From NCBI GenBank assembly GCA_005502775.1, contig SCNI01000021.1:1-62869 (forward strand): a DNA stretch of 62,869 nt, given 5' to 3'. Positions within the stretch are counted from its first letter, which is position 1. The number at the start of each line of letters is the position of its first letter. The DNA is from Microbacteriaceae bacterium 3FA27C10 (GTDB lineage Bacteria; Actinomycetota; Actinomycetes; Actinomycetales; Microbacteriaceae). The notes beneath the pieces were generated by a model. It searched no databases, was not told where the DNA came from, and saw only the letters and a list, made by a program, of their open reading frames with translations. The translations under genes were made by a program, and so were the position numbers. Shown here piece after piece: positions 3,693-18,350 of this stretch.

Positions 3693-6026
3693 ATGCCCCA
3701 CTACGGTCACCGTCTGCAGTTCGGAACCTTCGTCACCCCGGTGAACTCCCCGCCGGCCCGCGCCGTCGAGCTCGCGCAGCTGAGCGAGCGGCTCGGCTAC
3801 GACCTCGTGACCTTCCAGGACCACCCCTACCAGGCCGCCTTCCACGACACCTGGACCCTCATGACCTGGGTCGCGGCTCGCACCGAGCGCATCCGCATCG
3901 CTCCCAACGTGCTGAACGTGCCGCTGCGCCCGCCCGCGGTCACGGCCCGCGCCGCCGCGAGCCTCGACCTGCTCTCGGGCGGCCGCTTCGAGCTCGCGCT
4001 CGGCGCCGGCGGCTTCTGGGACGCCATCGAGGCAATGGGCGGTGACCGCCTCACCCCGGGCCAGGCTGTGGATGCGCTCAGCCAGGCCATCGACGTCATC
4101 CGCGGCATCTGGGACGCCGGCGAGCGCTCCCCGCTTGGCGCCGGCGGCGAGTACCACCACGTCGACGGCGCCAAGCGCGGCCCCGCGCCGGCCCACGACA
4201 TCCCGCTCTGGATCGGCGCCCTCAAACCCCGGATGCTGCGCCTCGTCGGCCGCAAGGGCGACGGCTGGCTGCCCTCCCTGCCCTACCTCCAGCCCGGTGA
4301 CCTCACGCGCGGCAACGTCGCCATCGACCAGGCGGCGACGGATGCGGGGCGCGACCCGCGCGAGATCCGCCGGCTCCTCAACATCGGCGGCCGGTTCGGG
4401 GCAGCCACGGGAGCGAGTGCAGCGGCACGCACGGGCCGCGAAGCCGGCATGCTCGACGGCCCGCCCGCGCGGTGGGTCGAGCAGCTCCTTCCGCTGGCTC
4501 TCGACGAGGGCGTGAGCACTTTCATCCTCCTGGGCGACGACCCCACGGCGATGGAGCGCTTCGCCGCCGAGGTGGCCCCGGGCCTGCGCGACGCCGTCGA
4601 ACGGGAGCTCGGCATCGACACGACCGCCGAGGCGCTCGTGCGCAGCCCGCTCGCGCGCCGCCGCGCGGGCATCGACTACGGCGCGATTCCGGCCTCGCTC
4701 GCCGCCCGGGCCGTCGAGCCCGGCGACTCCGCGTTCCGCAGCGTGCGCTCCACCTACCTGCGCGGAGGCTCGCCCGGCCTCGTTCTCCGGCCCGGCAGCG
4801 TCGACGAGGTGGTCGAGGCGCTCGCCTTCGCCCGCGCGCATCCGGAGCTCCCGCTCGGCGTGCGCAGCGGCGGGCACGGCATCAGCGGGCGCTCCACCAA
4901 TGACGGCGGGCTCGTCATCGACCTCGGCGCGCTCAACGCGATCGAGGTGCTCGACGAGGCCAGCCGGCGCGTGCGCATCCAGCCCGGCGCGCGCTGGATG
5001 GACGTCGCCGCCGCCCTCGGCGAGCACGGCTGGGCCTTGAGCTCCGGCGACTACGGCGGTGTGGGGGTGGGCGGCCTCGCGACGGCGGGCGGCATCGGTT
5101 GGCTCGTGCGCGAGCATGGACTCACCATCGACCACCTCCGGGCGGTCGACATCGTGCTCGCCGACGGCCGCGTGGTGCGTGCCGACGCCGAGCAGAACGC
5201 CGAGCTGTTCTGGGCCGTGCGGGGCGCCGGCGCGAACTTCGGCATCGTCGTGGCCTTCGAGTTCGAGGTCGACGAGGTGGGCGACATCGGCTGGGCGCAG
5301 CTCGCCTTCGACGCCGGGGAGGGCATCGAAGGAACGGCGGCCTTCCTCGAGGGCTGGGGTCGCCTGGTCGAGGAGTCGCCGCGCGAGCTCACGAGCTTCC
5401 TCATCCTGGGGGCGCCCCGATCGGGTCGCCCGGCGGTGGCGCAGATGCTCGCGGTCGTCGACTCCGACGACCCCGAGACCGTCATCGGCGAGCTGCAGCC
5501 CTTCGCCCAGCTCGGGCCGCTGCTCGACCAATCGGTGCAACTCACCTCCTACGCGGGCCTGATGGCGAACGCGCAGCCCGGTGAGCACGACGGCCGCGGC
5601 GAGCCGGCGGCCCGCACCGGCCTGATCGAGCACCTCACGCCGGAATTCTCCCTGGCCGCCGCCGAGATGATCGCGAGCGGCACCGTCTACTACTTCCAGA
5701 TCCGCGCGGTCGGCGGGGCGGTGAACGACGTGGCGCCGGATGCGACGGCCTACGCGCACCGCTCGGCCAACTTCTCGGTGGTCGCGTTCGGCGCCTCCAA
5801 GGAGCGCTTCGACCCGGTCTGGGATGCTCTCGCCCATCACTTCGACGGCCTCTACCTGAGTTTCGAGACCGACCAGCGGCCCGAGAGGCTGCGCGAGGCG
5901 TTCCCGCCGGCCACGCTGGCACGCCTACGGACACTGAAGCGCCGCTACGACCCGCAGAACGTCTTCCGCGACAACTTCAACATCGCGGAGGCGAAGGTCG
6001 AGCCGGAGCCCGCGCCGACGAGCTGA
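3693..6026 (+). CDS. Fusion of luciferase-like oxidoreductase and FAD-linked (BBE-type) oxidase
   Basis: This 777-residue protein joins two redox enzymes. Residues about 1-300 are a luciferase-like (LLM) TIM-barrel oxidoreductase of the F420 or FMN type, with GRFELALGAGGFWDA and an IPLWIGALKP segment. Residues about 345-765 are a FAD-linked oxidase of the PCMH/berberine-bridge class, ending with the BBE motif RRYDPQNVFRDNFNI. His395 in the RSGGHG motif is the usual covalent FAD anchor. The second anchor, a Cys in GxCPTVGVGG, is absent here (GDYGGVGVGG), so at most a single covalent bond to FAD is expected. There is no signal peptide. The substrate is unknown. The gene is divergent from the HxlR regulator. 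Confidence 0.85.
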   Translation: MPHYGHRLQFGTFVTPVNSPPARAVELAQLSERLGYDLVTFQDHPYQAAFHDTWTLMTWVAARTERIRIAPNVLNVPLRPPAVTARAAASLDLLSGGRFELALGAGGFWDAIEAMGGDRLTPGQAVDALSQAIDVIRGIWDAGERSPLGAGGEYHHVDGAKRGPAPAHDIPLWIGALKPRMLRLVGRKGDGWLPSLPYLQPGDLTRGNVAIDQAATDAGRDPREIRRLLNIGGRFGAATGASAAARTGREAGMLDGPPARWVEQLLPLALDEGVSTFILLGDDPTAMERFAAEVAPGLRDAVERELGIDTTAEALVRSPLARRRAGIDYGAIPASLAARAVEPGDSAFRSVRSTYLRGGSPGLVLRPGSVDEVVEALAFARAHPELPLGVRSGGHGISGRSTNDGGLVIDLGALNAIEVLDEASRRVRIQPGARWMDVAAALGEHGWALSSGDYGGVGVGGLATAGGIGWLVREHGLTIDHLRAVDIVLADGRVVRADAEQNAELFWAVRGAGANFGIVVAFEFEVDEVGDIGWAQLAFDAGEGIEGTAAFLEGWGRLVEESPRELTSFLILGAPRSGRPAVAQMLAVVDSDDPETVIGELQPFAQLGPLLDQSVQLTSYAGLMANAQPGEHDGRGEPAARTGLIEHLTPEFSLAAAEMIASGTVYYFQIRAVGGAVNDVAPDATAYAHRSANFSVVAFGASKERFDPVWDALAHHFDGLYLSFETDQRPERLREAFPPATLARLRTLKRRYDPQNVFRDNFNIAEAKVEPEPAPTS

Positions 6027-8929: not shown

Positions 8930-10507
8930 ATGGCTACTTTTGGAAACCTCTCGGACAGGCTCGCCGAAACCTTCAAGAACCTCCGCACGAAGGGAAAGCT
9001 GAGCCCGGCGGATGTCGACTCGACCGTTCGCGAGATCCGTCGCGCCCTGCTCGACGCCGACGTCGCGCTCGACGTGGTGAAGGACTTCACCAGCAAGGTG
9101 CGCGAGCGCGCGCTCGGCGACGAGGTGAACAAGGCGCTCAACCCCGCCCAGCAGGTGGTGCAGATCGTCAACGAGGAGCTCGTGCAGATCCTCGGCGGCA
9201 CCCAGCGCCGGCTCGAGTTCGCGAAGAAGCCGCCGACCGTCATCATGCTCGCCGGCCTTCAGGGGGCCGGTAAGACGACGCTCGCGGGCAAGCTCGCGAA
9301 GTGGCTCGCGAAGGACAATCACACCCCGCTGCTCGTGGCGGCCGACCTCCAGCGCCCCAACGCGGTGAACCAGCTGCAGGTCGTGGGCGGCCAGGCCGGT
9401 GTTCCGGTCTACGCGCCGGAGCCGGGCAACGGCGTGGGCAACCCCGTGCGCGTGGCGAAGGACAGCATCAAGTACGCCGTCGACAAGCAGTACGACACGG
9501 TCATCATCGACACGGCCGGCCGTCTCGGCGTCGACGCCGACATGATGAAGCAGGCCGCAGACATCCGCAAGGCCGTCGACCCCGACGAGGTGCTCTTCGT
9601 CATCGACGCGATGATCGGTCAGGACGCCGTGGCCACGGCCCGCGCCTTCCAGGAGGGTGTCGACTTCACCGGTGTCGTGCTCACCAAGCTCGACGGCGAC
9701 GCCCGTGGCGGTGCGGCGCTCTCGGTGGCCTCGGTCACCGGCCGGCCGATCATCTTCGCCTCGACGGGGGAGACGCTCGACGACTTCGAGCCGTTCTACC
9801 CCGACCGCATGGCTTCGCGCATCCTCGATCTCGGCGACATCCTCTCGCTCATCGAGCAGGCCCAGGAGGCCTTCGACGAGGACGAGGCGCGCAAGGTCGC
9901 CGAGAAGTTCGCGACCGACAGCTTCACGCTCGACGACTTCCTCAAGCAGATGCAGCAGCTGCGCAACATGGGCTCCATCAAGAAGATGATGGGCATGCTC
10001 CCGGGCGCCGGCGGCCTCAAGCAGCAGCTCGACAACTTCGACGAGAAGGAGATCGTGCGCACCGAGGCCATCATCCAGTCGATGACCAAGGCCGAGCGCA
10101 CCAACCCCAAGCTCCTCAACGGCTCGCGCCGCCTCCGGATCGCCAAGGGTTCCGGAATGACCGTCACCGACGTCAACTCGCTCGTGCAGCGCTTCGAGCA
10201 GGCCTCGAAGATGATGAAGACCGTGGCCAAGGGCGGCGTGCCGAACGTGCCCGGCATGGGCCCCATCCCGGGCGCCGGCTTCGGCGGAGGCCGCGGCAAG
10301 CCGCAGGCCAAGAAGAAGCAGGGCTCCCGCTCAGGCAACCCGGCGAAGCGCGCGGCCGAGAACGCGGCGCGGGCGAGCGGCGAGAAGCCGGCCGTCACCG
10401 CGGGTTCCGGCGGGGGAGCGGGCTTCGGCCTCGCCTCGAAGGCACCGAGCGGGCAGCCGAACCCGAGCCCCGAAGAGCTCGAGGCGCTGCAGCGTTTCCT
10501 TCGCTAG
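8930..10507 (+). CDS. ffh: Signal recognition particle protein Ffh
   Basis: This 525-residue GTPase binds 4.5S RNA and signal sequences and delivers nascent membrane proteins to FtsY. The N domain covers residues 1-95. The G domain has GLQGAGKTT at about 107, DTAGR at about 192 and TKLDG at about 252. The Met-rich M domain (about 300-440) includes the GSGM RNA-binding motif. The C-terminal tail of about 80 residues is rich in Gly, Lys and Ala, longer than in E. coli (453 residues in total) and typical of actinobacteria. A TAAACT hexamer 9 bases before the ATG, with no clear ribosome site, suggests a very short or absent leader. A strong terminator follows. Confidence 0.98.
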   Translation: MATFGNLSDRLAETFKNLRTKGKLSPADVDSTVREIRRALLDADVALDVVKDFTSKVRERALGDEVNKALNPAQQVVQIVNEELVQILGGTQRRLEFAKKPPTVIMLAGLQGAGKTTLAGKLAKWLAKDNHTPLLVAADLQRPNAVNQLQVVGGQAGVPVYAPEPGNGVGNPVRVAKDSIKYAVDKQYDTVIIDTAGRLGVDADMMKQAADIRKAVDPDEVLFVIDAMIGQDAVATARAFQEGVDFTGVVLTKLDGDARGGAALSVASVTGRPIIFASTGETLDDFEPFYPDRMASRILDLGDILSLIEQAQEAFDEDEARKVAEKFATDSFTLDDFLKQMQQLRNMGSIKKMMGMLPGAGGLKQQLDNFDEKEIVRTEAIIQSMTKAERTNPKLLNGSRRLRIAKGSGMTVTDVNSLVQRFEQASKMMKTVAKGGVPNVPGMGPIPGAGFGGGRGKPQAKKKQGSRSGNPAKRAAENAARASGEKPAVTAGSGGGAGFGLASKAPSGQPNPSPEELEALQRFLR

Positions 10508-10524
10508 AACGGCGCGGTACGTCG

Positions 10525-10562
10525 AAAGGCCCGCCCCCGTCCGAGACGGGAGGCGGGCCTTT
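10525..10562. terminator. Bidirectional rho-independent terminator
   Basis: A GC-rich hairpin with arms AAAGGCCCGCC and GGCGGGCCTTT encloses a CCGTC/GACGGG inner stem. It lies between the convergent ffh and apionate-operon ends and has A/T tails on both sides, so it can stop transcription from either direction. Confidence 0.88.
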
Positions 10563-10592
10563 CCGATGAGCTCAGCGCCTGCGCTCGGCCGA

Positions 10593-11456
10593 TCAGCGCT
10601 CGATCTTGTCGAGGTGCAGCATCGCGGCGAGGTTCTTGTCGAGCTCCTCGTCGGTGAAGACCTTCTTCCAGTCCTCCTTGATGATGGCTCCGTGGCCGTA
10701 GTCCATCGCGATCAGGCAGGCGTCGCTGAACGGGTTGTCGCCCTTCAGCGTGTTCGCGAGCGCCACCTGGGTGTGTCCGAGCAGGATGGCGCGGGCAGCC
10801 GGCTCCGGAACGCCCATGGTGTTCACGGCCTCGTCGAGCGACTCCTTCAGCAGGGCGCCGATCATGCAGGCGATAGTCTCCACGAGGGTGGGCTCGAGCT
10901 GCGCGAGCTGCTTCACGGTGGTCCAGTGCACGTCTCCCACGGGGGCGAAGATGGCGCGCACGACCTGCTCGACCTGGGCCTTCTTGGTCTCGTCGTCGCT
11001 CTCGATCGCGGCGATCGCATCCTGAAGCGCGGCGATGCCGCCGAAGGTGTCGGCGTATTCCTCGGGCGTGTGACGCTCGACGAACACCGAGGGGTGACAG
11101 GGGTGCGTGACGGCCTGGATGACGTCGTCACGGCGGGTGAGGAGGCCCGCGTAGGCGGCGGCCGGGTCGAGCGTCAGCACGATCGAGCCCGACTTCATCT
11201 GCGGCACCACGTCGGCCGACACGGCCTTGAGCGCGAGGTCGGGAACGGCGAGCACCACGACGTCGGCGTCGCGGACGGCGTCGGGCGTCTCGGTGAGGGT
11301 GCGGCCGGTGGCGGTCACTCGCTCCTGGCCGGCGGGCGAGTTCTCGCTGTAGTACACGGTGTAGTCGGTCTTGACGAGGTTGTTGGACACGCGCATGCCC
11401 ATCTTCCCGCCTGCGCCGATGACCGCGATGGTGAGAGTGTCAGTTGACGTCGACAT
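10593..11456 (-). CDS. apnO: PGDH_C-type NAD-dependent dehydrogenase, probable D-apionate oxidoisomerase
   Basis: This 287-residue cytoplasmic enzyme has an N-terminal Rossmann motif (AVIGAGGKMGMRV, about residues 11-23) and a helical C-terminal domain of the phosphogluconate-dehydrogenase-like family, with THPCHPSVF and GALLKESLDEAVNTMG. The family includes ApnO, which oxidises and isomerises D-apionate to 3-oxo-isoapionate. The neighbours supply the remaining steps expected after that reaction, which is the main reason for this assignment; a different sugar acid cannot be excluded. It is the last gene of the operon, and its start lies inside the end of the preceding gene (17-base overlap). 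Confidence 0.65.
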   Translation of the reverse strand: MSTSTDTLTIAVIGAGGKMGMRVSNNLVKTDYTVYYSENSPAGQERVTATGRTLTETPDAVRDADVVVLAVPDLALKAVSADVVPQMKSGSIVLTLDPAAAYAGLLTRRDDVIQAVTHPCHPSVFVERHTPEEYADTFGGIAALQDAIAAIESDDETKKAQVEQVVRAIFAPVGDVHWTTVKQLAQLEPTLVETIACMIGALLKESLDEAVNTMGVPEPAARAILLGHTQVALANTLKGDNPFSDACLIAMDYGHGAIIKEDWKKVFTDEELDKNLAAMLHLDKIER

Positions 11457-12261
11457 GGTTGCTCCTTAGGTAGTCGAGGTTGTGGGTGTTCCAGTCGTTC
11501 TCCAGCCGGATGGTCTCCTCCAGGGAGTCGCCCAGCGGAAGCCAGTGTTCGATCACGAGATTGATGCCACGCTCCTCGGGCCGCACGGTCTTCATCAGGT
11601 GCTCGAAGTCGAGCAGCCCGGTGCCGAGCGCCGCGCCTTCGAGGGTGAAGCCCACCCAGCCGCCACGACGGGTGAACGCGAAGTCCTTCACGTGCACGTT
11701 GGCCGTGTACGGGGCGCAGCGGTCGATCACGTCGACCGGGTTCTCGAGGGCGGCGACGGTGTTGGCGGGGTCGAGGCAGATGCCGAGTCTCGGATGTGCG
11801 AGCTGCTCCACGAGGCCCACCAGCGCCGTCGACGACACCTGCTCGTAGGTCTCGAGGGCGAGTGTGACCCCGGCGTCGTCGAACGCGCCGAGCACCTCGC
11901 CGAGCTGCTGCTCGGCCTGGACGAGAGTGGGCCGGGAGGCGGGGGAGTACAGCATCGAGCGCAGCAATGGGGCGCCGAGCGCCTGCGCGATGCCGAGGTA
12001 CCGGCGCAGGTGGTCGGGGGAGATGCCTTTCGTGCCCACTTCGAGCACGATGTCGAGCTCCTCGGCCAGCCCCGCCAGGCGGGCGAGCTCGGCGGCGCTG
12101 AACTCCTCGATCGGCGCGTAGTCGCAGATCTGGAAGAGCGGCACGCCGAGCTCGTGCGTGCGGCGCAGCATGTCGAAGGCGTCGAGCCGGCGCAGCCCGG
12201 GCTGCTCGCCCGCGAGCTCGGAGTGCTGCCAGAAGAAGGCATACGTGCTGAGCCCGATCAT
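11440..12261 (-). CDS. oiaC: Xylose-isomerase-like TIM barrel, probable 3-oxo-isoapionate decarboxylase
   Basis: This 273-residue sugar-phosphate isomerase/epimerase-like TIM barrel shows metal-ligand strands: ALETYEQV (Glu), GICLDPANT (Asp), NVHVKDF (His, Lys, Asp) and a late Glu in LVIEHW. In D-apionate pathways a member of this fold (OiaC) decarboxylates 3-oxo-isoapionate to L-erythrulose, which would link the dehydrogenase to the tetrulose kinase and isomerases encoded here. An epimerase of the EryC type is the alternative. The start overlaps the preceding stop by four bases (ATGA), and the 3' end overlaps the next gene by 17 bases. Confidence 0.62.
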   Translation of the reverse strand: MIGLSTYAFFWQHSELAGEQPGLRRLDAFDMLRRTHELGVPLFQICDYAPIEEFSAAELARLAGLAEELDIVLEVGTKGISPDHLRRYLGIAQALGAPLLRSMLYSPASRPTLVQAEQQLGEVLGAFDDAGVTLALETYEQVSSTALVGLVEQLAHPRLGICLDPANTVAALENPVDVIDRCAPYTANVHVKDFAFTRRGGWVGFTLEGAALGTGLLDFEHLMKTVRPEERGINLVIEHWLPLGDSLEETIRLENDWNTHNLDYLRSNHVDVN

Positions 12262-13004
12262 GCGCGGGCCCCCGCTTCGGCGAGCACACGTTCGAGCGCG
12301 GCAGGGTCGTGCGCGAACCGGCCGAGGAACAGGCCGTCGACCTCGGGGCCGAGCTCGGAGAGGAGGCCGGGGCCGGCGCTGCCGCCGTAGATCACGGCGC
12401 TGCCCGGCCGGTGGGCCACGGCGGCATGCAGAAGGGCGCACACGGCGGTGACGTAGGCGGGCTCCGCAGGTTCGGCGGCGCCGATCGCCCACACCGGCTC
12501 GTAGGCCACGATCACGGGGCCGTCGACCGCGCCGGCCAGGGCCGATGCGATCTGCCGCAGGCATTCGCCGGCGGCCGCGGCCGGCTCGGCGCGCATCCGC
12601 TCGCCCACGCAGAGCACGGGAGTCAGCCCGTTGCGGAGGGCCGCGGCGGTCTTCTGCGCCACGGTCTCGTCGGTCTCGCCGAACAGCGAGCGGCGCTCGG
12701 CGTGGCCGACCTCGGCCAGGCGCACGCCGATCTCGGCCAGCTCGGGGCCGCCCACTTCGCCGGTGAAGGCGCCCGTGTCGGCGGCTGCGACATCCTGTGC
12801 CCCCACGAGCACCCGAGAGCCCTCGAGCGCGCGGACGCTCGAGGCCAGCGAGAGATAGCCCGGGATGACGAACAGCTGCACCCGGCCCTCGGCCACCGCC
12901 GGGGTCGCGCGCCCGATCTCGCCGACCCGCTCGATCCAGGAGGCGGTCTGCGCGTGCCCGAAGTACATCTTCAGGCTCACACCGACGAGGGTGGGAGAAC
13001 TCAT
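12258..13004 (-). CDS. lerI: Triose-phosphate-isomerase-like enzyme, probable L-erythrulose 1-phosphate isomerase
   Basis: This 248-residue TIM barrel keeps the triosephosphate isomerase catalytic set: Lys12 (SLKMYFG), His101 (GHAERR, usually GHSERR) and Glu169 (AYEPVWAIG). The altered N-terminal motif (VSLKMYFG instead of NWKMN) separates it from housekeeping TpiA and matches the LerI/EryH branch, which converts L-erythrulose 1-phosphate to D-erythrulose 4-phosphate. It starts one base inside the preceding RpiB-type stop (TGATG), so translation is coupled. The function rests on the family split and the operon context. Confidence 0.72.
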   Translation of the reverse strand: MSSPTLVGVSLKMYFGHAQTASWIERVGEIGRATPAVAEGRVQLFVIPGYLSLASSVRALEGSRVLVGAQDVAAADTGAFTGEVGGPELAEIGVRLAEVGHAERRSLFGETDETVAQKTAAALRNGLTPVLCVGERMRAEPAAAAGECLRQIASALAGAVDGPVIVAYEPVWAIGAAEPAEPAYVTAVCALLHAAVAHRPGSAVIYGGSAGPGLLSELGPEVDGLFLGRFAHDPAALERVLAEAGARA

Positions 13005-13471
13005 CAGCAGGAGCCCGTGGTCTCGTACTCGCTCAGCACGGCGACCTTCTCGGCGCTCGCGCTCTTTTCGTCGAAGCGGTAGGTGAGCCACTCGCGCACG
13101 AGGCGGCGGGCGAGCTCGATGCCGATCACGCGCTGGCCCATGGTGAGCACCTGCGCGTTGTTGGAGAGGATGAGGCGCTCCACCGAGAAGCTGTCGTGCG
13201 CCACCGAGGCGCGGATGCCCGCGACCTTGCCCGCGGCCATCGCCACGCCGATGCCGGTGCCGCAGAACAGCAGCGCGCGGTCGGCGGCGCCTGCGGCGAT
13301 GAGCTCGCCCGCGGCCACTCCCACGCGAGGGTAGGGCGTGTGCCCGTCGGCGTCGACGCCGACGTCGGTGACCGACTCGACGAGATCGCTGGCGAGGAGA
13401 TCCGTCTTCAGGATCTCCTTGTAGTCGTAACCGGCGTCATCCGATCCGATGACGATGCGGAGCTTGTCCAT
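13004..13471 (-). CDS. derI: RpiB-type sugar-phosphate isomerase, probable D-erythrulose 4-phosphate isomerase
   Basis: This 155-residue LacAB/RpiB-family protein has the opening [13 protein letters not shown] and the catalytic Cys70 in [37 protein letters not shown] forms the phosphate- and sugar-binding region. In tetrulose pathways this family (DerI/EryI) turns D-erythrulose 4-phosphate into D-erythrose 4-phosphate, an intermediate of the pentose phosphate pathway. Ribose-5-phosphate isomerase activity is the alternative. The gene follows the kinase stop by 3 bases and overlaps the next start by one base. Confidence 0.75.
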
Positions 13472-13474
13472 GCT

Positions 13475-15211
13475 CTATTTCTCCTCTTCTCCGCCGGTCA
13501 GCACCGGCGCGATCGCGTGCGCGATCAGTGCGAACGAGTACGCTCCGGGATCGGGCGTGCCCAGGCTCTTCTCCGCGTGCGGGCGCGCGCGGCCCATCAG
13601 CGGCAGCAGCTCGGCGGTGGCCTCCGCGGCGGCGCTCGCGGCGTCGGCGGCGAGCGTCCAGGCCTCGGCCAGCGGATGCCCGGCCGCGACCTCGGCGGCC
13701 AGAGTCTCGGCGAAGGGCACGAGGGCGTCGACCATGGTCTTGTCGCCGGGTTGCGCCTTGCCGAAGGCCATGATGGCCTCGACCGCGTCGGTGACGCCGG
13801 CGCTCACGGAGACGCCGGTGGGCGCATCCGTGTCTCCGAGCCGACCGCCGAGAGCGGCGAGGGCGGCGCCCCAGAGCGCGCCCGACGTGCCTCCGGCCTT
13901 GTTGGCCCAGGCGTCTCCGGCGAGGCTCAGGGTGGTCTGGATGCCCGCGCCGGCCTCCACGGCGGCGCTCGCTGCGGCGGCGCCCGCCCGGGCCCCGCGT
14001 TGCATGCCGATGCCGTGGTCGCCGTCTCCGGCGATCGCGTCGATGCGGCCGAGCTCCTCGACGTTCTCGTCGACCACGGTCACGATCGCGGCCAGCGCGC
14101 GTTCGGCCTGCCGTGCGGCGGCCTGCGAGACCTCGCTCGCCTCGGGGATCGGCACCTCGTCGGTGCGCGCGATCTCCGCCGCGTCGAGCTGCTCGGCGGG
14201 GGCGACGGAGCCCTTGCGGTAGGCGGGGGTGTCGGCCGGAGCGCGCCAGAAGCCCTCGAGCTCCTCGTCGAGCCAGAACAGCGTGAGCGAGAGTCCCGCC
14301 ATGTCGAAGCTCGTCACGAGCTCGCCCACCTCGGGGTCGACCACCTCCAGGCCGGCGGCCTCGAGCAGGCGGGCGACACAGCGGTAGACCACGAAGAGCT
14401 CCTCGTACTTCACCGAGCCGAGGCCGTTCAGGATGACGCCCACGCGGTGCCCGGCGGCCTCCTCGATGCCCTCCGGCAGCTCGGCGAGCAGCGCGCCCAC
14501 GAGCTGCCCGGCGAGCTCGTCGGCGCTCGGGACGCCGGTCTCGTCGATGCCGGGCTCGCCGTGGATGCCCATGCCCACCGCCATCCGCCCCTCGGGGACG
14601 GAGAACAGCGGATGCTCGGCGCCGGGCAGCGTGCAGCCGCTGAACGCGACGCCGAAGGAACGGGTGCGTTCGTTGGCGAGAGTCGCGACGCGCACCACCT
14701 CGTCGAGCGGGTAGCCCGCCTCGGCGGCGCCGGCGGCGGCCTTGAACACCGTGAAGTCGCCCGCGATGCCGCGGCGCTTGTGCTTCTCGGCGGGCGGCGC
14801 GCTCGAGATGTCGTCGGTCACCACCACCGTGCGGGTGGGGATGCCGGCGGCGTTCAGCTTCTCCTCGGCGCGGCTGAAGTGCAGCACGTCGCCGGCGTAG
14901 TTGCCGTAGCTCAGCAGCACGCCGGCGCCGCGCTCGGCCGCGGTGACCACCGACTCGACCTGCTGCGCCGAGGGCGAGGCGAAGAGGTTGCCCATGGCCG
15001 CGCCGTGGGCGAGGCCCGCACCGACGATGCCGCCGAAGGCCGGGTAATGGCCCGAGCCGCCGCCGATCACCAGGGCGACCTGACCGTCGGGGGTGCGGGT
15101 GCTCCGCACCACGCCGCCGGCGACCCGGCGCACATGGTTGCGGTTGGCGGCCACGAAGCCGTCGATCATCTCGTCGGCGAAGTCGGCCGGGTCGTTGTAC
15201 AAACGCGTCAT
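13475..15211 (-). CDS. lerK: DhaK-DhaL fusion kinase, probable L-erythrulose kinase
   Basis: This 578-residue ATP-dependent kinase has a DhaK domain (about 1-335) fused to a DhaL domain (about 370-575). Gly-rich GGGSGHYPAFGG opens the substrate site. His217 (GMGIHGEPG) is the residue that binds the keto-substrate covalently in dihydroxyacetone kinases. The DhaL nucleotide and metal site is DAIAGDGDHGIGM. LerK and DerK, which phosphorylate erythrulose, share this fused architecture. Neighbouring tetrulose-phosphate isomerases favour erythrulose over dihydroxyacetone. An AAGGAG site precedes the ATG, and the permease gene lies 16 bases upstream. Confidence 0.8.
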   Translation of the reverse strand: MTRLYNDPADFADEMIDGFVAANRNHVRRVAGGVVRSTRTPDGQVALVIGGGSGHYPAFGGIVGAGLAHGAAMGNLFASPSAQQVESVVTAAERGAGVLLSYGNYAGDVLHFSRAEEKLNAAGIPTRTVVVTDDISSAPPAEKHKRRGIAGDFTVFKAAAGAAEAGYPLDEVVRVATLANERTRSFGVAFSGCTLPGAEHPLFSVPEGRMAVGMGIHGEPGIDETGVPSADELAGQLVGALLAELPEGIEEAAGHRVGVILNGLGSVKYEELFVVYRCVARLLEAAGLEVVDPEVGELVTSFDMAGLSLTLFWLDEELEGFWRAPADTPAYRKGSVAPAEQLDAAEIARTDEVPIPEASEVSQAAARQAERALAAIVTVVDENVEELGRIDAIAGDGDHGIGMQRGARAGAAAASAAVEAGAGIQTTLSLAGDAWANKAGGTSGALWGAALAALGGRLGDTDAPTGVSVSAGVTDAVEAIMAFGKAQPGDKTMVDALVPFAETLAAEVAAGHPLAEAWTLAADAASAAAEATAELLPLMGRARPHAEKSLGTPDPGAYSFALIAHAIAPVLTGGEEEK

Positions 15212-15227
15212 GATGGAACTCCTTGGG

Positions 15228-16625
15228 TCAGTGCAGGACGACGGTGTCCGGGGCGTCGAGGCCGGAGACCCGGCCGCGGCGGGCGAGCAGCACCATGAGC
15301 ACGGCCGAGAGCAGCATGAAGAAGCCCACGATCGCCATCGGCACGATGTACTGCGGGGTGCCGTCGGCGTTCTTGGTCCAGTCGGCGACCGCGCCCGTGA
15401 TGTACGGCGCGCCGAAGCCGGCGATGTTGCCCACGGTGTTGATCAGCGCCACACCGGCCGCTGCGGCGACTCCGGTGAGGAACTGCGTGGGCAGCGTCCA
15501 GAAGTTCGGCAGCACCGCGAAGATGGCCATCGCCGTGATCGCGATGATGGCGATCGTCGCGACCGGCGACCCGGCGAGCAGCGCGAAGGGGATGGTCAGC
15601 GCGGCGACGACCGCGGGGCCCGCGATGTGCCAGGTCTTGAGACCTCGGCGGCTGACATCCTTCGTCCAGAACCACAGCGCGATGGCCGCGGGGATGTAGG
15701 GGATGGCCGTGATGAGGCCCTTCTGGAACACGTCGTACTTCACGCCGTAGAGCTCCTGGAAGCCCGAGATGATGGTGGGAAGGAAGAAGGCGAGCGTGTA
15801 GAGGCCGTAGATGAAGCCGAAGTAGATGAACGCCAGCGTCCAGACCCGGCCGCTCGAGAAAGCCTGCTTGAACCCGCCGCGCTTCTTGCCGCCGGAGCTC
15901 GTGAGGTTGAGCGACTCGGTCTTCACCTTCTCGTTCTCGAGTTCGGTGGTGAGCCACTGCTGCTCCTCCGGGGTGAGCCACTTCGCGTCGGTGGGCTTGT
16001 CCTTGAGGTAGAACCAGGCGACCACGCCGATGACGATGGCCGGGATGCCCACGCCGAGGAACATGACGCGCCAGCCCTCGAGGCCGAACAGACCGTGTGC
16101 CCCGATGAGGAGTCCGGCGAGCGGGGCGCCGACCACCGTGGTGAGGGGCTGCGCCAAGTAGAAGAGGGCGAGGATCTTGCCGCGGTGGCGGGCGGGCACC
16201 CAGAGGCTGAGGAAGAGGATGGCGCCGGGGAAGAACCCGGCCTCGGCCACGCCCAGCAGGAAGCGGAGCACTGCCAGCTGCTCGAAGTTGCCCACCCAGG
16301 TGAACAGAACCGCGACGATGCCCCAGCTCACCATGATGCGGGCGAGCCAGCGGCGGGCGCCGAAGCGGGCCAGCGCCAGGTTCGAGGGCACCTCGAGCAG
16401 GATGTAGCCGATGAAGAACACGCCCGAGGCGAAGCCGACCTGCGTGACGCTGAGCGCCAGATCGTCGTTCATGCCGTTCGGCGCGGCGAAGCCGATGGCC
16501 GAACGGTCGAGGTAGTTGATGAAGAACATGAGAGCGACGAACGGCACGAGTCGCCAGGCGACTTTGCGGATCGTCGACTTCTCGACGGCGGAAACGGTGG
16601 TTTCCGCGCTGGTGGTGACAGACAC
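15228..16625 (-). CDS. MFS permease, ACS (organic anion) family
   Basis: This 465-residue membrane protein has about 12 transmembrane segments. INYLDRSAIGFAAP in helix 1, GYILLEVPSNLALARFGARRW in the next loop and FFPGAILFLSLWVPARHRGK mark the anion:cation symporter family, whose members import sugar acids, tartrate and similar carboxylates. This supports a sugar acid such as D-apionate, rather than a neutral tetritol, as the operon substrate. The start is GTG with an AAAGGAG site. It is the first gene of the operon, downstream of the promoter and palindrome at 16690-16718. Confidence 0.85.
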   Translation of the reverse strand: MSVTTSAETTVSAVEKSTIRKVAWRLVPFVALMFFINYLDRSAIGFAAPNGMNDDLALSVTQVGFASGVFFIGYILLEVPSNLALARFGARRWLARIMVSWGIVAVLFTWVGNFEQLAVLRFLLGVAEAGFFPGAILFLSLWVPARHRGKILALFYLAQPLTTVVGAPLAGLLIGAHGLFGLEGWRVMFLGVGIPAIVIGVVAWFYLKDKPTDAKWLTPEEQQWLTTELENEKVKTESLNLTSSGGKKRGGFKQAFSSGRVWTLAFIYFGFIYGLYTLAFFLPTIISGFQELYGVKYDVFQKGLITAIPYIPAAIALWFWTKDVSRRGLKTWHIAGPAVVAALTIPFALLAGSPVATIAIIAITAMAIFAVLPNFWTLPTQFLTGVAAAAGVALINTVGNIAGFGAPYITGAVADWTKNADGTPQYIVPMAIVGFFMLLSAVLMVLLARRGRVSGLDAPDTVVLH

Positions 16626-16689
16626 GAGAACTCCTTTGTCAGTGTTGGCGGGCGACGCTGATCGACGATCATGACGAGGCGATGACGAG

Positions 16690-16718
16690 AACCTATCAAC
16701 CGGTTGACCAATTTACAA
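16690..16718 (-). promoter_or_regulatory. Catabolic operon promoter with embedded operator
   Basis: On the minus strand, TTGTAA (16713-16718) and TAGGTT (16690-16695) are spaced by exactly 17 bases and fit -35 and -10 boxes for the permease gene. The spacer contains a perfect 12-base palindrome, TCAACCGGTTGA (16696-16707). A repressor bound there would block RNA polymerase. The divergent FadR/GntR regulator starting at 16758 is the natural candidate. Confidence 0.68.
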
Positions 16719-16757
16719 GCGACACCGGGACATCGCCGAAGTTGATAGCGTGATCGC

Positions 16758-17531
16758 GTGCCCGCTTATCCCGGATCCGCGTCGCAAGACATGAGCGCCG
16801 CCATCGGCAGCGTGCCGATCGGCACGGCCGTGAGCGCCGTCGCGAAGCGGCTGCTCGACTACTTCACGAGCGGCGAGATCGAGCCGGGCACGCGGCTGCC
16901 GCCCGAGCGGCAGCTGGCAGCCTCGCTCGGCATCGGCCGCTCGGCGGTGCGCGAGGCGCTCGCCGCCCTCGAGATCCTCGGCATCGTCGACGTGCGGCCC
17001 GGCTCCGGAACCTACCTGCGCAGCACTGCCTCCGAGCTACTGCCCGAGACTCTCAACTGGGGCCTCATGCTCGCCGCTCCCCGCACCGAGGAGCTCATCG
17101 CCGTGCGCGGCGAGCTCGAGGTGTTCGCGGCGCGCACCGCCGCCGTGACCATCACGGAGGAGCAGCTGCGCAAGCTGCACGAGCACCTCGTGGCCATGCG
17201 GGAGAACCTCTCCGTGCGCACGCGCTTCATCGAGGCCGACCTCAAGTTCCACCTGCAGATCGCCCAGGCGGCGGGCAACCACGTGCTCGCCGACCTGCTG
17301 CAGAGCATCCGCTCACTGCTGCGCATCTGGGTGGAGCGCGGGCTCGAGGCCGACGAGGATGCACAGCGCGCGTTCGAAGAGCACGAACGCGTCTACGAGG
17401 CCCTGCGCACCCGGGATCCGGCTGTGGTCGAGCAGGCGATGCGCCAGCACATGGACACGGCCGGTGAGCGCTTGCGCCGCACGGTCGGAGAGGGCCGCCC
17501 CGCGGTCGGCGAGGCCGCCGCAGAAGCTTAG
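16758..17531 (+). CDS. FadR/GntR-family transcriptional regulator
   Basis: This 257-residue regulator has an N-terminal winged helix (about residues 22-90: GTRLPPERQLAASLGIGRSAVREALAALE, then VRPGSGTYL). A helical FCD effector domain follows, with metal-binding-type residues in DLKFHLQIAQAAGNH and a late EEH/RQHMDTA. FCD regulators usually sense small carboxylates. It is divergent from the apionate-like operon, whose promoter carries a 12-base palindrome about 50 bases away, so it is probably the operon's repressor. The start is GTG at 16758; a later ATG at 16791 is possible. Confidence 0.88.
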   Translation: MPAYPGSASQDMSAAIGSVPIGTAVSAVAKRLLDYFTSGEIEPGTRLPPERQLAASLGIGRSAVREALAALEILGIVDVRPGSGTYLRSTASELLPETLNWGLMLAAPRTEELIAVRGELEVFAARTAAVTITEEQLRKLHEHLVAMRENLSVRTRFIEADLKFHLQIAQAAGNHVLADLLQSIRSLLRIWVERGLEADEDAQRAFEEHERVYEALRTRDPAVVEQAMRQHMDTAGERLRRTVGEGRPAVGEAAAEA

Positions 17532-17540
17532 GCTTGGCGT

Positions 17541-18350
17541 ATGACCTTCTCCTCTGCTTCGCGCCCTGTGCGCGTGGGCGTGCAGATCGCGCCCCAGCAC
17601 TCGTCTTACGGCACCATCCGCGACACCCTCGCCGAGCTCGAAGACCTCGGCGTCGACATCGCCTTCAACTGGGACCACTTCTACCCGCTCTCCGGGGAGC
17701 CCGACGGCCTGCACTTCGAGGGCTGGACGATGCTCGCGGCCTGGGCGGAGCAGACCTCGCGCATCCAGTTCGGCCCGCTCGTGACCTGCAACAGCTACCG
17801 CAACCCCGACCTGCTCGCCGACATGGCCCGCACCGTCGATCACATCTCCGCCAAGGACGGCGCCGAGGGCCGCCTGGTCTTCGGCATCGGCTCGGGCTGG
17901 TTCGAGCGCGACTACGACGAGTACGGCTACGAGTTCGGCACGGCCGGCCAGCGGCTGGATGCGCTCTCCGAGGCGCTGCCCCGCATCGAGGCCCGCTGGG
18001 CCAAGCTGAACCCGGCGCCCACGCGCGACATCCCCGTGCTCATCGGCGGTGGCGGCGAGAAGAAGACGCTGCGCATCGTGGCCGAGCACGCTGACATCTG
18101 GCACTCGTTCAGCGATGTCGAGACGCTCACCCGCAAGCTCGCCGTGCTGCGCGAGTGGACCGACAAGGTCGGCCGAGACTTCTCCGAGATCGAGATCTCG
18201 ACGGGCGTCGCCGGCGCCGACGGCACGCGCCAGCCGGCGCTCGAGCAGCAGCTCGAACTCGGCGTCACCCTCTTCACCCTCGGCGTCACCGGCCCCGACA
18301 TCGACATGCAGGCCGTCCGCGACCTCGTCAAGTGGCGCGACAGCCTCTAG
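17541..18350 (+). CDS. LLM-class F420-dependent oxidoreductase
   Basis: This 269-residue luciferase-superfamily TIM barrel shows FNWDHFYPL, RIQFGPLVTCNSYRNP and GRLVFGIGSGWFERDYDEYG, all typical of the F420-dependent TIGR03560-like group. It has no signal peptide and its substrate is unknown. It starts nine bases after the GntR stop. A TAGGCT hexamer exactly 6 bases before the ATG suggests a leaderless transcript of its own. It ends at a pair of GC hairpins facing the YbdK gene. Confidence 0.85.
   Translation: MTFSSASRPVRVGVQIAPQHSSYGTIRDTLAELEDLGVDIAFNWDHFYPLSGEPDGLHFEGWTMLAAWAEQTSRIQFGPLVTCNSYRNPDLLADMARTVDHISAKDGAEGRLVFGIGSGWFERDYDEYGYEFGTAGQRLDALSEALPRIEARWAKLNPAPTRDIPVLIGGGGEKKTLRIVAEHADIWHSFSDVETLTRKLAVLREWTDKVGRDFSEIEISTGVAGADGTRQPALEQQLELGVTLFTLGVTGPDIDMQAVRDLVKWRDSL

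What the first reader, a model, noticed from the sequence alone, without database searches (positions are those of the whole stretch)
10593..17531. Compact operon predicted to convert D-apionate to D-erythrose 4-phosphate
Seen: six overlapping or closely spaced minus-strand genes encoding an ACS-family permease, a DhaK-DhaL kinase with the substrate His217, an RpiB-type isomerase (Cys70), a TPI-type isomerase (Lys12/His101/Glu169), a xylose-isomerase-like TIM barrel and a PGDH_C dehydrogenase, with a divergent FCD regulator. Known: D-apionate catabolism can run through ApnO (oxidoisomerase), OiaC (decarboxylase), LerK, LerI and DerI to erythrose 4-phosphate. Inference: this is that route in one operon with its own anion importer, using plant-cell-wall apiose as the ultimate source. 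No apiose dehydrogenase or lactonase gene is present, so uptake at the acid stage is implied.
Basis: partly seen in the sequence, partly recalled or inferred. Interest (0 to 1): 0.72.

Follow-up and report, generated by a model that had tools for sequence, protein, structure and literature searches.

The report
Bacterial operon for eating D-apionate
An actinobacterium carries a compact, probably transferred set of genes that most likely imports the branched plant-sugar acid D-apionate and turns it into a common sugar phosphate; the route is a known one, but its control switch and the missing first steps of the usual apiose pathway are informative.

Summary
In detail: six co-directional genes (10593-16625, minus), a divergent GntR/FCD regulator (16758-17531, plus), and the cited residues. 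The D-apionate reading is well supported by comparative genomics, not by assay. In 149 genomes (own and relatives) ApnO and the TIM barrel co-occur (28 with both, 1 and 1 with one only); 24 of 29 ApnO genomes also hold a homologue of D-apionate lactonase ApnL, against 1 of 120 others. Some relatives carry the same operon beside ApnL and an apiose-locus-type ABC binding protein. The full gene order recurs in 43 of 80 named loci. A conserved operator (core AACCGGTT) lies in 69 of 70 distinct regulator/operon intergenic regions against 1 of 423 control windows. No orthologue of ApnL, ApsD or the SDR that adjoins ApnL in relatives was found in this genome, so entry at the acid stage is plausible. 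The cassette sits between ffh and an LLM gene that adjoin in four of four genus mates examined, and its ApnO is closest to Agreia's: probable horizontal acquisition. Weakest step: no characterised OiaC sequence was available, so the decarboxylase is inferred. New member of a known kind, moderate interest.

The parts
10593..11456 (-). ApnO candidate, D-apionate oxidoisomerase (Rossmann + PGDH_C), 287 aa
   Evidence: PF16896 187.4 bits; 41% identity to the corresponding gene of the Rhizobium anhuiense OiaX/ApnL locus, 81% to that of L048, which sits near ApnL and an apiose-locus-type ABC
11440..12261 (-). OiaC candidate, 3-oxo-isoapionate decarboxylase (xylose-isomerase-like TIM barrel), 273 aa from the ATG at 12261
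   Evidence: PF01261; co-occurs with ApnO, Fisher p 5e-28; AF2 model pLDDT 93.1, closest PDB folds Art22 and D-tagatose 3-epimerase; Glu138/Asp165/His191/Glu239 invariant in 32 sequences, in the numbering of window:11440-12264
12258..13004 (-). LerI candidate, L-erythrulose-1-phosphate isomerase (TPI family), 248 aa
   Evidence: PF00121; a solved L-erythrulose-1-phosphate isomerase (11ef) is the third PDB hit; Ser10-Leu-Lys12 in place of the Asn-Trp-Lys of the genome's other TPI
13004..13471 (-). DerI candidate, D-erythrulose-4-phosphate isomerase (RpiB family), 155 aa
   Evidence: TIGR02133 186.7 bits over its cut-off 168.2; NF051858 (DerI, rhizobial) 136 bits under its cut-off 240; a second RpiB elsewhere in the genome
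13475..15211 (-). LerK candidate, L-erythrulose 1-kinase (DhaK-DhaL fusion), 578 aa, His217
   Evidence: PF02733 + PF02734, NF011049 743.8 bits over its cut-off 492; GGGSGHYP motif in 56 of 58 homologues
15228..16625 (-). MFS permease of the anion:cation symporter type, probable D-apionate importer, 465 aa
   Evidence: MFS_1; TIGR00893 below its cut-off; nearest PDB sequences are sialin and VGLUT2
16696..16711 (-). Probable operator of the FCD regulator, TTGGTCAACCGGTTGA
   Evidence: Core AACCGGTT in 69 of 70 distinct FCD/operon intergenic regions against 1 of 423 control windows; only exact 16-base copy in the genome
16758..17531 (+). GntR/FCD regulator, divergent
   Evidence: PF00392 + PF07729; homologues of about 49-73% identity beside the operon in relatives
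10508..17540 (.). Seven-gene insert between ffh and the LLM oxidoreductase gene
   Evidence: ffh and the LLM gene adjoin directly in 4 of 4 same-genus genomes examined

Best explanation
The operon imports D-apionate (MFS) and degrades it: ApnO oxidises and rearranges D-apionate to 3-oxo-isoapionate, the TIM barrel (OiaC) decarboxylates that beta-keto acid to L-erythrulose, the DhaK-DhaL kinase (LerK) makes L-erythrulose 1-phosphate, the TPI-type enzyme (LerI) makes D-erythrulose 4-phosphate and the RpiB-type enzyme (DerI) makes D-erythrose 4-phosphate for the pentose phosphate pathway. The divergent FCD protein binds the shared TTGGTCAACCGGTTGA operator and probably represses both directions until an intermediate or substrate of the pathway appears. 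Shown by sequence: gene content, order, co-occurrence, operator conservation, no ApnL/ApsD/SDR orthologue found. Inferred: each catalytic step, the permease substrate, the regulator-operator pairing and the inducer. The OiaC reaction sequence is recalled from Carter et al. 2018 (and stated in the finding); I could not read that paper.
For: Co-occurrence in 149 genomes: ApnO/TIM barrel 28 both, 1 and 1 alone, 119 neither; ApnO/ApnL 24 both, 5 ApnO only, 1 ApnL only, 119 neither (related genomes, so the p-values overstate independence). ApnL lies within 10 kb of the TIM-barrel gene in 18 of 23 genomes that have both. The Rhizobium protein used as ApnL query is a D-apionate lactonase by NF049900 (1048.9 bits, cut-off 750), and OiaX by NF042437 lies in the same locus (776.7, cut-off 700). 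L046 and L048 hold operon, ApnL and a binding protein 60-61% identical to the one in that Rhizobium locus; L099 likewise at 62%. Plasmids of Erwinia sp. E602 and Pantoea sp. At-9b carry the same MFS-kinase-TPI-TIM barrel-ApnO run. The TPI and RpiB are second copies in this genome. Operator against control. A strain with an ApnL/ApsD/ApnO/OiaK/OiaX cluster is reported to grow on D-apiose (PMC11747546, passages), which supports the anchor route, not this operon directly.
Against: No assay. No OiaC reference sequence or model was found, and NCBIfam gives the TIM barrel no match. The RpiB passes the ribose-5-phosphate isomerase model and fails the rhizobial DerI model. The PDB hits of the TPI are mostly plain triosephosphate isomerases. 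The actinobacterial ApnL homologues are distant: L048 has 212 bits on NF049900, under its cut-off of 750. In two same-genus genomes a TIM-barrel homologue (47-48%) lies beside an OiaX-like RuBisCO-like protein, OiaK-like kinase, ApnO and ApnL (L060, L061), where a second decarboxylase would be redundant, and one genome (G016, L047) has TIM barrel, OiaK-like kinase and RuBisCO-like protein without ApnO. Proteobacterial loci L075, L076 and L079 pair ApnO and the TIM barrel with no LerK/LerI/DerI homologue in the fetched flanks, which are partly cut by contig ends. This genome is one of 5 ApnO genomes without ApnL, so its link to apiose is through relatives only.
Confidence: 0.8

Rival explanations
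1. Same chemistry on a different branched or linear sugar acid: the genome lacks the apiose front end because its ApnO/TIM-barrel pair has drifted to another substrate that also yields a C4 ketose.
For: No ApnL, ApsD or front-end SDR orthologue found in the genome; 4 further ApnO genomes also lack ApnL. Solved relatives of the TIM barrel include epimerases, isomerases and a hydratase.
Against: ApnO is 80-89% identical to ApnO of ApnL-bearing relatives such as G064, G017 and G082, and the operator is shared with ApnL-bearing loci, which argues against a new substrate.
Confidence: 0.1
2. An L-erythrulose, erythritol or threitol operon in which ApnO and the TIM barrel are side activities.
For: LerK/LerI/DerI-type genes also serve tetritol catabolism (recalled; one search gave listings only). 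Kinase, TPI and RpiB are three of the six genes.
Against: In several relatives the unit beside the same type of regulator is only ApnO + TIM barrel + ApnL, without LerK/LerI/DerI in the fetched 18 kb (L042, L045, L049, L052, L056, L057). No polyol dehydrogenase is in the operon.
Confidence: 0.05
3. The TIM barrel is not a decarboxylase but an isomerase or epimerase acting before or after ApnO, and decarboxylation is spontaneous or done by another enzyme; the operon would still serve D-apionate.
For: Closest folds are the isomerase Art22 and D-tagatose 3-epimerases; it also occurs beside or near RuBisCO-like genes (L060, L061, L047).
Against: No other decarboxylase candidate is in the operon, and the route needs the loss of one carbon to feed a C4 kinase module.
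Confidence: 0.15

Closest known systems
D-apiose/D-apionate catabolism, OiaC branch (Carter et al. 2018, Nat Chem Biol 14:696; recalled, only its title seen in a reference list)
   Same: ApnO-type dehydrogenase, TIM barrel, LerK-, LerI- and DerI-type genes in one unit (roles recalled)
   Different: No ApsD or ApnL orthologue found in this genome; MFS importer instead of the ABC system; whether that paper covers this actinobacterial operon could not be checked
Rhizobial OiaX apiose locus (Rhizobium anhuiense pRA_T24_2, L034)
   Same: ApnO, LerI- and DerI-type genes, sugar-acid to erythrose 4-phosphate logic
   Different: OiaK-like kinase and RuBisCO-like OiaX in place of TIM barrel and DhaK-DhaL step, ABC importer, Gfo/Idh/MocA dehydrogenase and ApnL present
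Erwinia sp. E602 and Pantoea sp. At-9b plasmid operons (L032, L033)
   Same: MFS, DhaK-DhaL kinase, TPI, TIM barrel and ApnO in the same order; ApnO 57-58% identical
   Different: rpiB stands apart on the other strand and the adjacent regulator is a sugar-binding transcriptional regulator, not FCD
Agreia spp. operons (L068-L072)
   Same: Same seven genes and order; ApnO 95-96%, MFS 87% identical
   Different: The ffh-LLM interval of the one Agreia genome examined (L177) does not hold the operon

Membership tests
OiaC-type D-apionate pathway | ApnO (PGDH_C) present | tested here: met
   PF16896 187.4 bits; 41% identity to the ApnO-position gene of an OiaX/ApnL locus. No curated ApnO model exists in the NCBIfam search, so this rests on homology and context
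OiaC-type D-apionate pathway | OiaC orthologue | tested here: inconclusive
   TIM barrel co-occurs with ApnO, but no characterised OiaC sequence or model was available
OiaC-type D-apionate pathway | L-erythrulose kinase LerK | tested here: inconclusive
   NF011049 dihydroxyacetone kinase family met; no LerK model matched; specificity inferred
OiaC-type D-apionate pathway | L-erythrulose-1-phosphate isomerase LerI | tested here: inconclusive
   TPI family with Ser in place of Asn10; 11ef L-erythrulose-1-phosphate isomerase is PDB hit 3 at E 3.7e-35, below a putative TPI and a TPI
OiaC-type D-apionate pathway | DerI by the NCBIfam model NF051858 (rhizobial) | tested here: not met
   136 bits against 240; the actinobacterial RpiB model TIGR02133 is met instead
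OiaC-type D-apionate pathway | enzyme activities and growth on D-apionate | not testable with these tools
   no assay possible
Complete D-apiose pathway | D-apionate lactonase ApnL in the genome | tested here: not met
   no match to the Rhizobium ApnL at E 1e-10 or to a 9-sequence profile at E 0.001, while the 4 ApnL-bearing genomes among the 10 were found; assembly of 115 contigs, completeness 99.88
Complete D-apiose pathway | D-apiose dehydrogenase (ApsD, or the SDR that adjoins ApnL in relatives) | tested here: not met
   ApsD-like matches at most 28% over part of the query; best SDR match 38%, against 75-78% in three ApnL-bearing genomes
RuBisCO-like OiaX/OiaT branch | OiaK and RuBisCO-like protein in the operon | tested here: not met
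   none among the operon's Pfam matches; not searched genome-wide

The most novel reading that the evidence does not exclude
The cassette is a mobile, acid-only scavenging module: free D-apionate is itself a nutrient released by other apiose oxidisers, and bacteria gain or drop the front end (an SDR acting as a D-apiose dehydrogenase unrelated to ApsD, plus ApnL) around a constant core, with one FCD regulator and the AACCGGTT operator.
Probability: 0.4. Interest if true: 0.5.

Novelty: new member of a known kind. Interest (0 to 1): 0.36.

Why it matters
It gives a testable gene set, operator and regulator for a little-studied branch of plant sugar use across many actinobacteria, separates acid-only from complete apiose users, and points to a candidate new D-apiose dehydrogenase (the SDR beside ApnL) in relatives.

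Tried and rejected
Considered and rejected: an ordinary glycolysis or pentose-phosphate cluster (the TPI and RpiB are second copies); a RuBisCO-like OiaX branch in the operon (none). A second regulon site in the genome: the three other hits have 2 mismatches, against 2 hits of the reversed control pattern, and the two overlapping ones at C22 fall inside an ORF with no visible link. In the window alone, a match with up to 3 mismatches arises in 17 of 100 shuffles, so the operator claim rests on conservation. An operator in front of ApnL itself was found in only 3 of 36 ApnL genes (L126, L130, L143); at the start of the SDR, an operator with up to 2 mismatches was found in 10 of 36 adjacent SDR-ApnL pairs (two of the ten are the same genome seen twice). 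Repeats in 10400-17650 were short and imperfect, with none that marks the ends of the insert; no promoter-like site was found, and 3 terminator-like sites against 1.5 in shuffles. G+C of the insert (0.703) does not differ from the window (0.701), so composition gives no support for transfer.

Literature: 'apionate' 1 paper, 'isoapionate' 2, 'apiose'+'Arthrobacter' 4, 'apiose'+'catabolic'+'dehydrogenase' 30, and the wider searches (6 papers; 347, 15 listed). No listed title or abstract start points to this operon; I saw listings only, except passages of PMC11747546 and PMC6302742. Carter et al. 2018 is not held; recalled only. I therefore cannot say that this operon is not in print.

Counting notes: at least six of the relatives' loci are the same genomes as named loci (L039/L084, L040/L106, L043/L100, L044/L105, L046/L104, L008/L088), so distinct sequences are used for the operator. 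The control windows are fixed offsets from the same loci and mostly coding. The named loci are the best 80 of 325; many are cut by contig ends; none was dropped from the 80. From, three genomes with only weak TIM-barrel matches (G002, G032, G141) were not counted as having the gene.
Full report
OBSERVATION. Six minus-strand genes lie head to tail at 10593-16625 with overlaps or short gaps, and a plus-strand GntR/FCD gene starts after a 132-base gap (starts). The quoted residues check out.

IS IT THE APIONATE ROUTE? I used a Rhizobium anhuiense plasmid locus as anchor. Its RuBisCO-like gene passes the OiaX model (776.7 bits, cut-off 700) and its 615-aa 'hypothetical protein' passes the ApnL model NF049900 (1048.9 bits, cut-off 750); its four-carbon acid sugar kinase reaches 475.1 bits on the OiaK model, under the cut-off of 700. 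The window's ApnO is 41% identical to the ApnO-position gene there, over nearly the whole length. A paper reports growth on D-apiose for a strain with an ApnL/ApsD/ApnO/OiaK/OiaX cluster (PMC11747546, passages), and another cites Carter et al. 2018 for RuBisCO-like proteins that act on 3-oxo-isoapionate 4-phosphate (PMC6302742, passages). Neither speaks of the TIM-barrel branch, which I take from the finding and from recall.

CO-OCCURRENCE. Among 149 genomes (own and relatives), 29 have ApnO at E 1e-10 and 29 have the TIM barrel at E below 1e-30; 28 have both. ApnL was found in 25, 24 of them with ApnO (Fisher 9e-22). Genomes are related, so the p-values overstate independence. In 18 of 23 genomes with both ApnL and the TIM barrel the two genes lie within 10 kb. 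L046, L048, L073 and L099 add a binding protein about 60% identical to that of the Rhizobium locus. The actinobacterial ApnL proteins are distant from the curated model (L048: 212 bits, cut-off 750), so their lactonase role is itself inferred.

HOW WIDESPREAD. A scan of species genomes gave 325 TIM-barrel relatives, best 80 kept. In 43 of 80 the order is FCD(-) MFS LerK DerI LerI OiaC ApnO; in 9 more only the MFS is missing; the other 28 are variants, among them loci cut by contig ends and loci with OiaC-ApnO and no kinase module nearby. Hosts include Agreia, Plantibacter, Microbacterium, Arthrobacter, Glycomyces, Actinoplanes and, with another context, Propionivibrio and Accumulibacter bins. 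Two enterobacterial plasmids hold the same five-gene run with rpiB apart.

CONTROL SWITCH. The intergenic region between FCD gene and operon holds AACCGGTT in 69 of 70 distinct sequences (75 regions before removal of duplicates, window included) against 1 of 423 control windows of equal length from the same loci, which are mostly coding. The window's site is TTGGTCAACCGGTTGA at 16696-16711; it is the only exact match in the 4.0-Mb assembly, with three further 2-mismatch hits against 2 of the reversed-pattern control. The regulon in this genome is therefore probably the operon and its regulator alone. That the FCD protein binds the site is inferred from position and conservation.

THE MISSING FRONT END. 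No ApnL was found with a single query or a nine-sequence profile, ApsD-like matches were at most 28% identical over part of the query, and the best binding-protein match was 32%. In loci with ApnL an SDR gene of at least 40% identity directly adjoins ApnL on the same strand in 36 of 54 (duplicates included; 26 of 37 among the named 80). It is 75-78% conserved in the three ApnL-bearing genomes searched, while the five ApnO genomes without ApnL have at most 40%. I take the SDR for the actinobacterial D-apiose dehydrogenase (inference). So this genome seems to have the acid half of the pathway only, and import of D-apionate by the MFS is the simplest reading. The MFS is not confined to ApnL-less genomes, so it is not proof of an acid-only life.

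ORIGIN. In G001, G003, G010 and G013 of the same genus ffh is followed directly by the LLM gene; in the window the seven genes lie exactly between them. Ffh is 94-95% identical within the genus and 86% to Agreia, while ApnO is 95-96% to Agreia and 76% to the genus mate G003, which carries its operon on another contig than ffh. Horizontal acquisition from an Agreia-like donor fits; no tree was built, and composition neither supports nor opposes it. The contig length of G003:C2 equals that of Herbiconiux ginsengi NZ_FNPZ01000001.1 and the ffh coordinates of that named genome are the same, so the window is probably from Herbiconiux or a close group.

THE WEAK STEP. The TIM barrel models well (pLDDT 93.1) and resembles Art22 and D-tagatose 3-epimerases at 14-18% sequence identity. 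Its Glu138, Asp165, His191 and Glu239 are invariant in 32 sequences, and the first three fall on Glu, Asp and His of solved relatives in sequence alignments, which suggests a metal site (the role of these residues is recalled, and the geometry was not inspected). A metal-assisted beta-keto-acid decarboxylation is plausible, but an isomerase role is not excluded, and its presence beside or near RuBisCO-like genes in L060, L061 and L047 is unexplained.

VERDICT. The reaction scheme is known; the operator, the acid-only state, the insertion and the SDR-ApnL pairing are what this work adds, without a check against the main paper.

Noticed in passing
L073:7400-8152 and homologues beside ApnL in 36 of 54 loci with ApnL: A short-chain dehydrogenase adjoins ApnL in actinobacteria and may be a D-apiose dehydrogenase unrelated to ApsD.
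   Followed up: partly
L060:2419-9208 and L061:8722-15428 (G014, G006, same genus): Another apiose-type locus with OiaK-like kinase, ApnO, ApnL, an OiaX-like RuBisCO-like protein and a homologue of the TIM barrel together; the RuBisCO-like protein of L060 is under the OiaX cut-off (443 of 700 bits).
   Followed up: partly
L075, L076, L079 (Accumulibacter bin, Proteobacteria bin, Propionivibrio dicarboxylicus): ApnO (41-43%) and TIM barrel (60-63%) without LerK/LerI/DerI homologues in the fetched flanks; TRAP transporter genes lie near in L076 and L079.
   Followed up: partly
L182 (G000:C22:19000-29000), about 4855-4874: Two overlapping two-mismatch matches to the operator inside an ORF at 4596-5423; probably chance.
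   Followed up: partly
L066 (G000:C47:14500-31436): Two distant paralogues of the TIM barrel (29% and 33%) with sugar ABC transporter-like ORFs nearby; function not examined.
   Followed up: no
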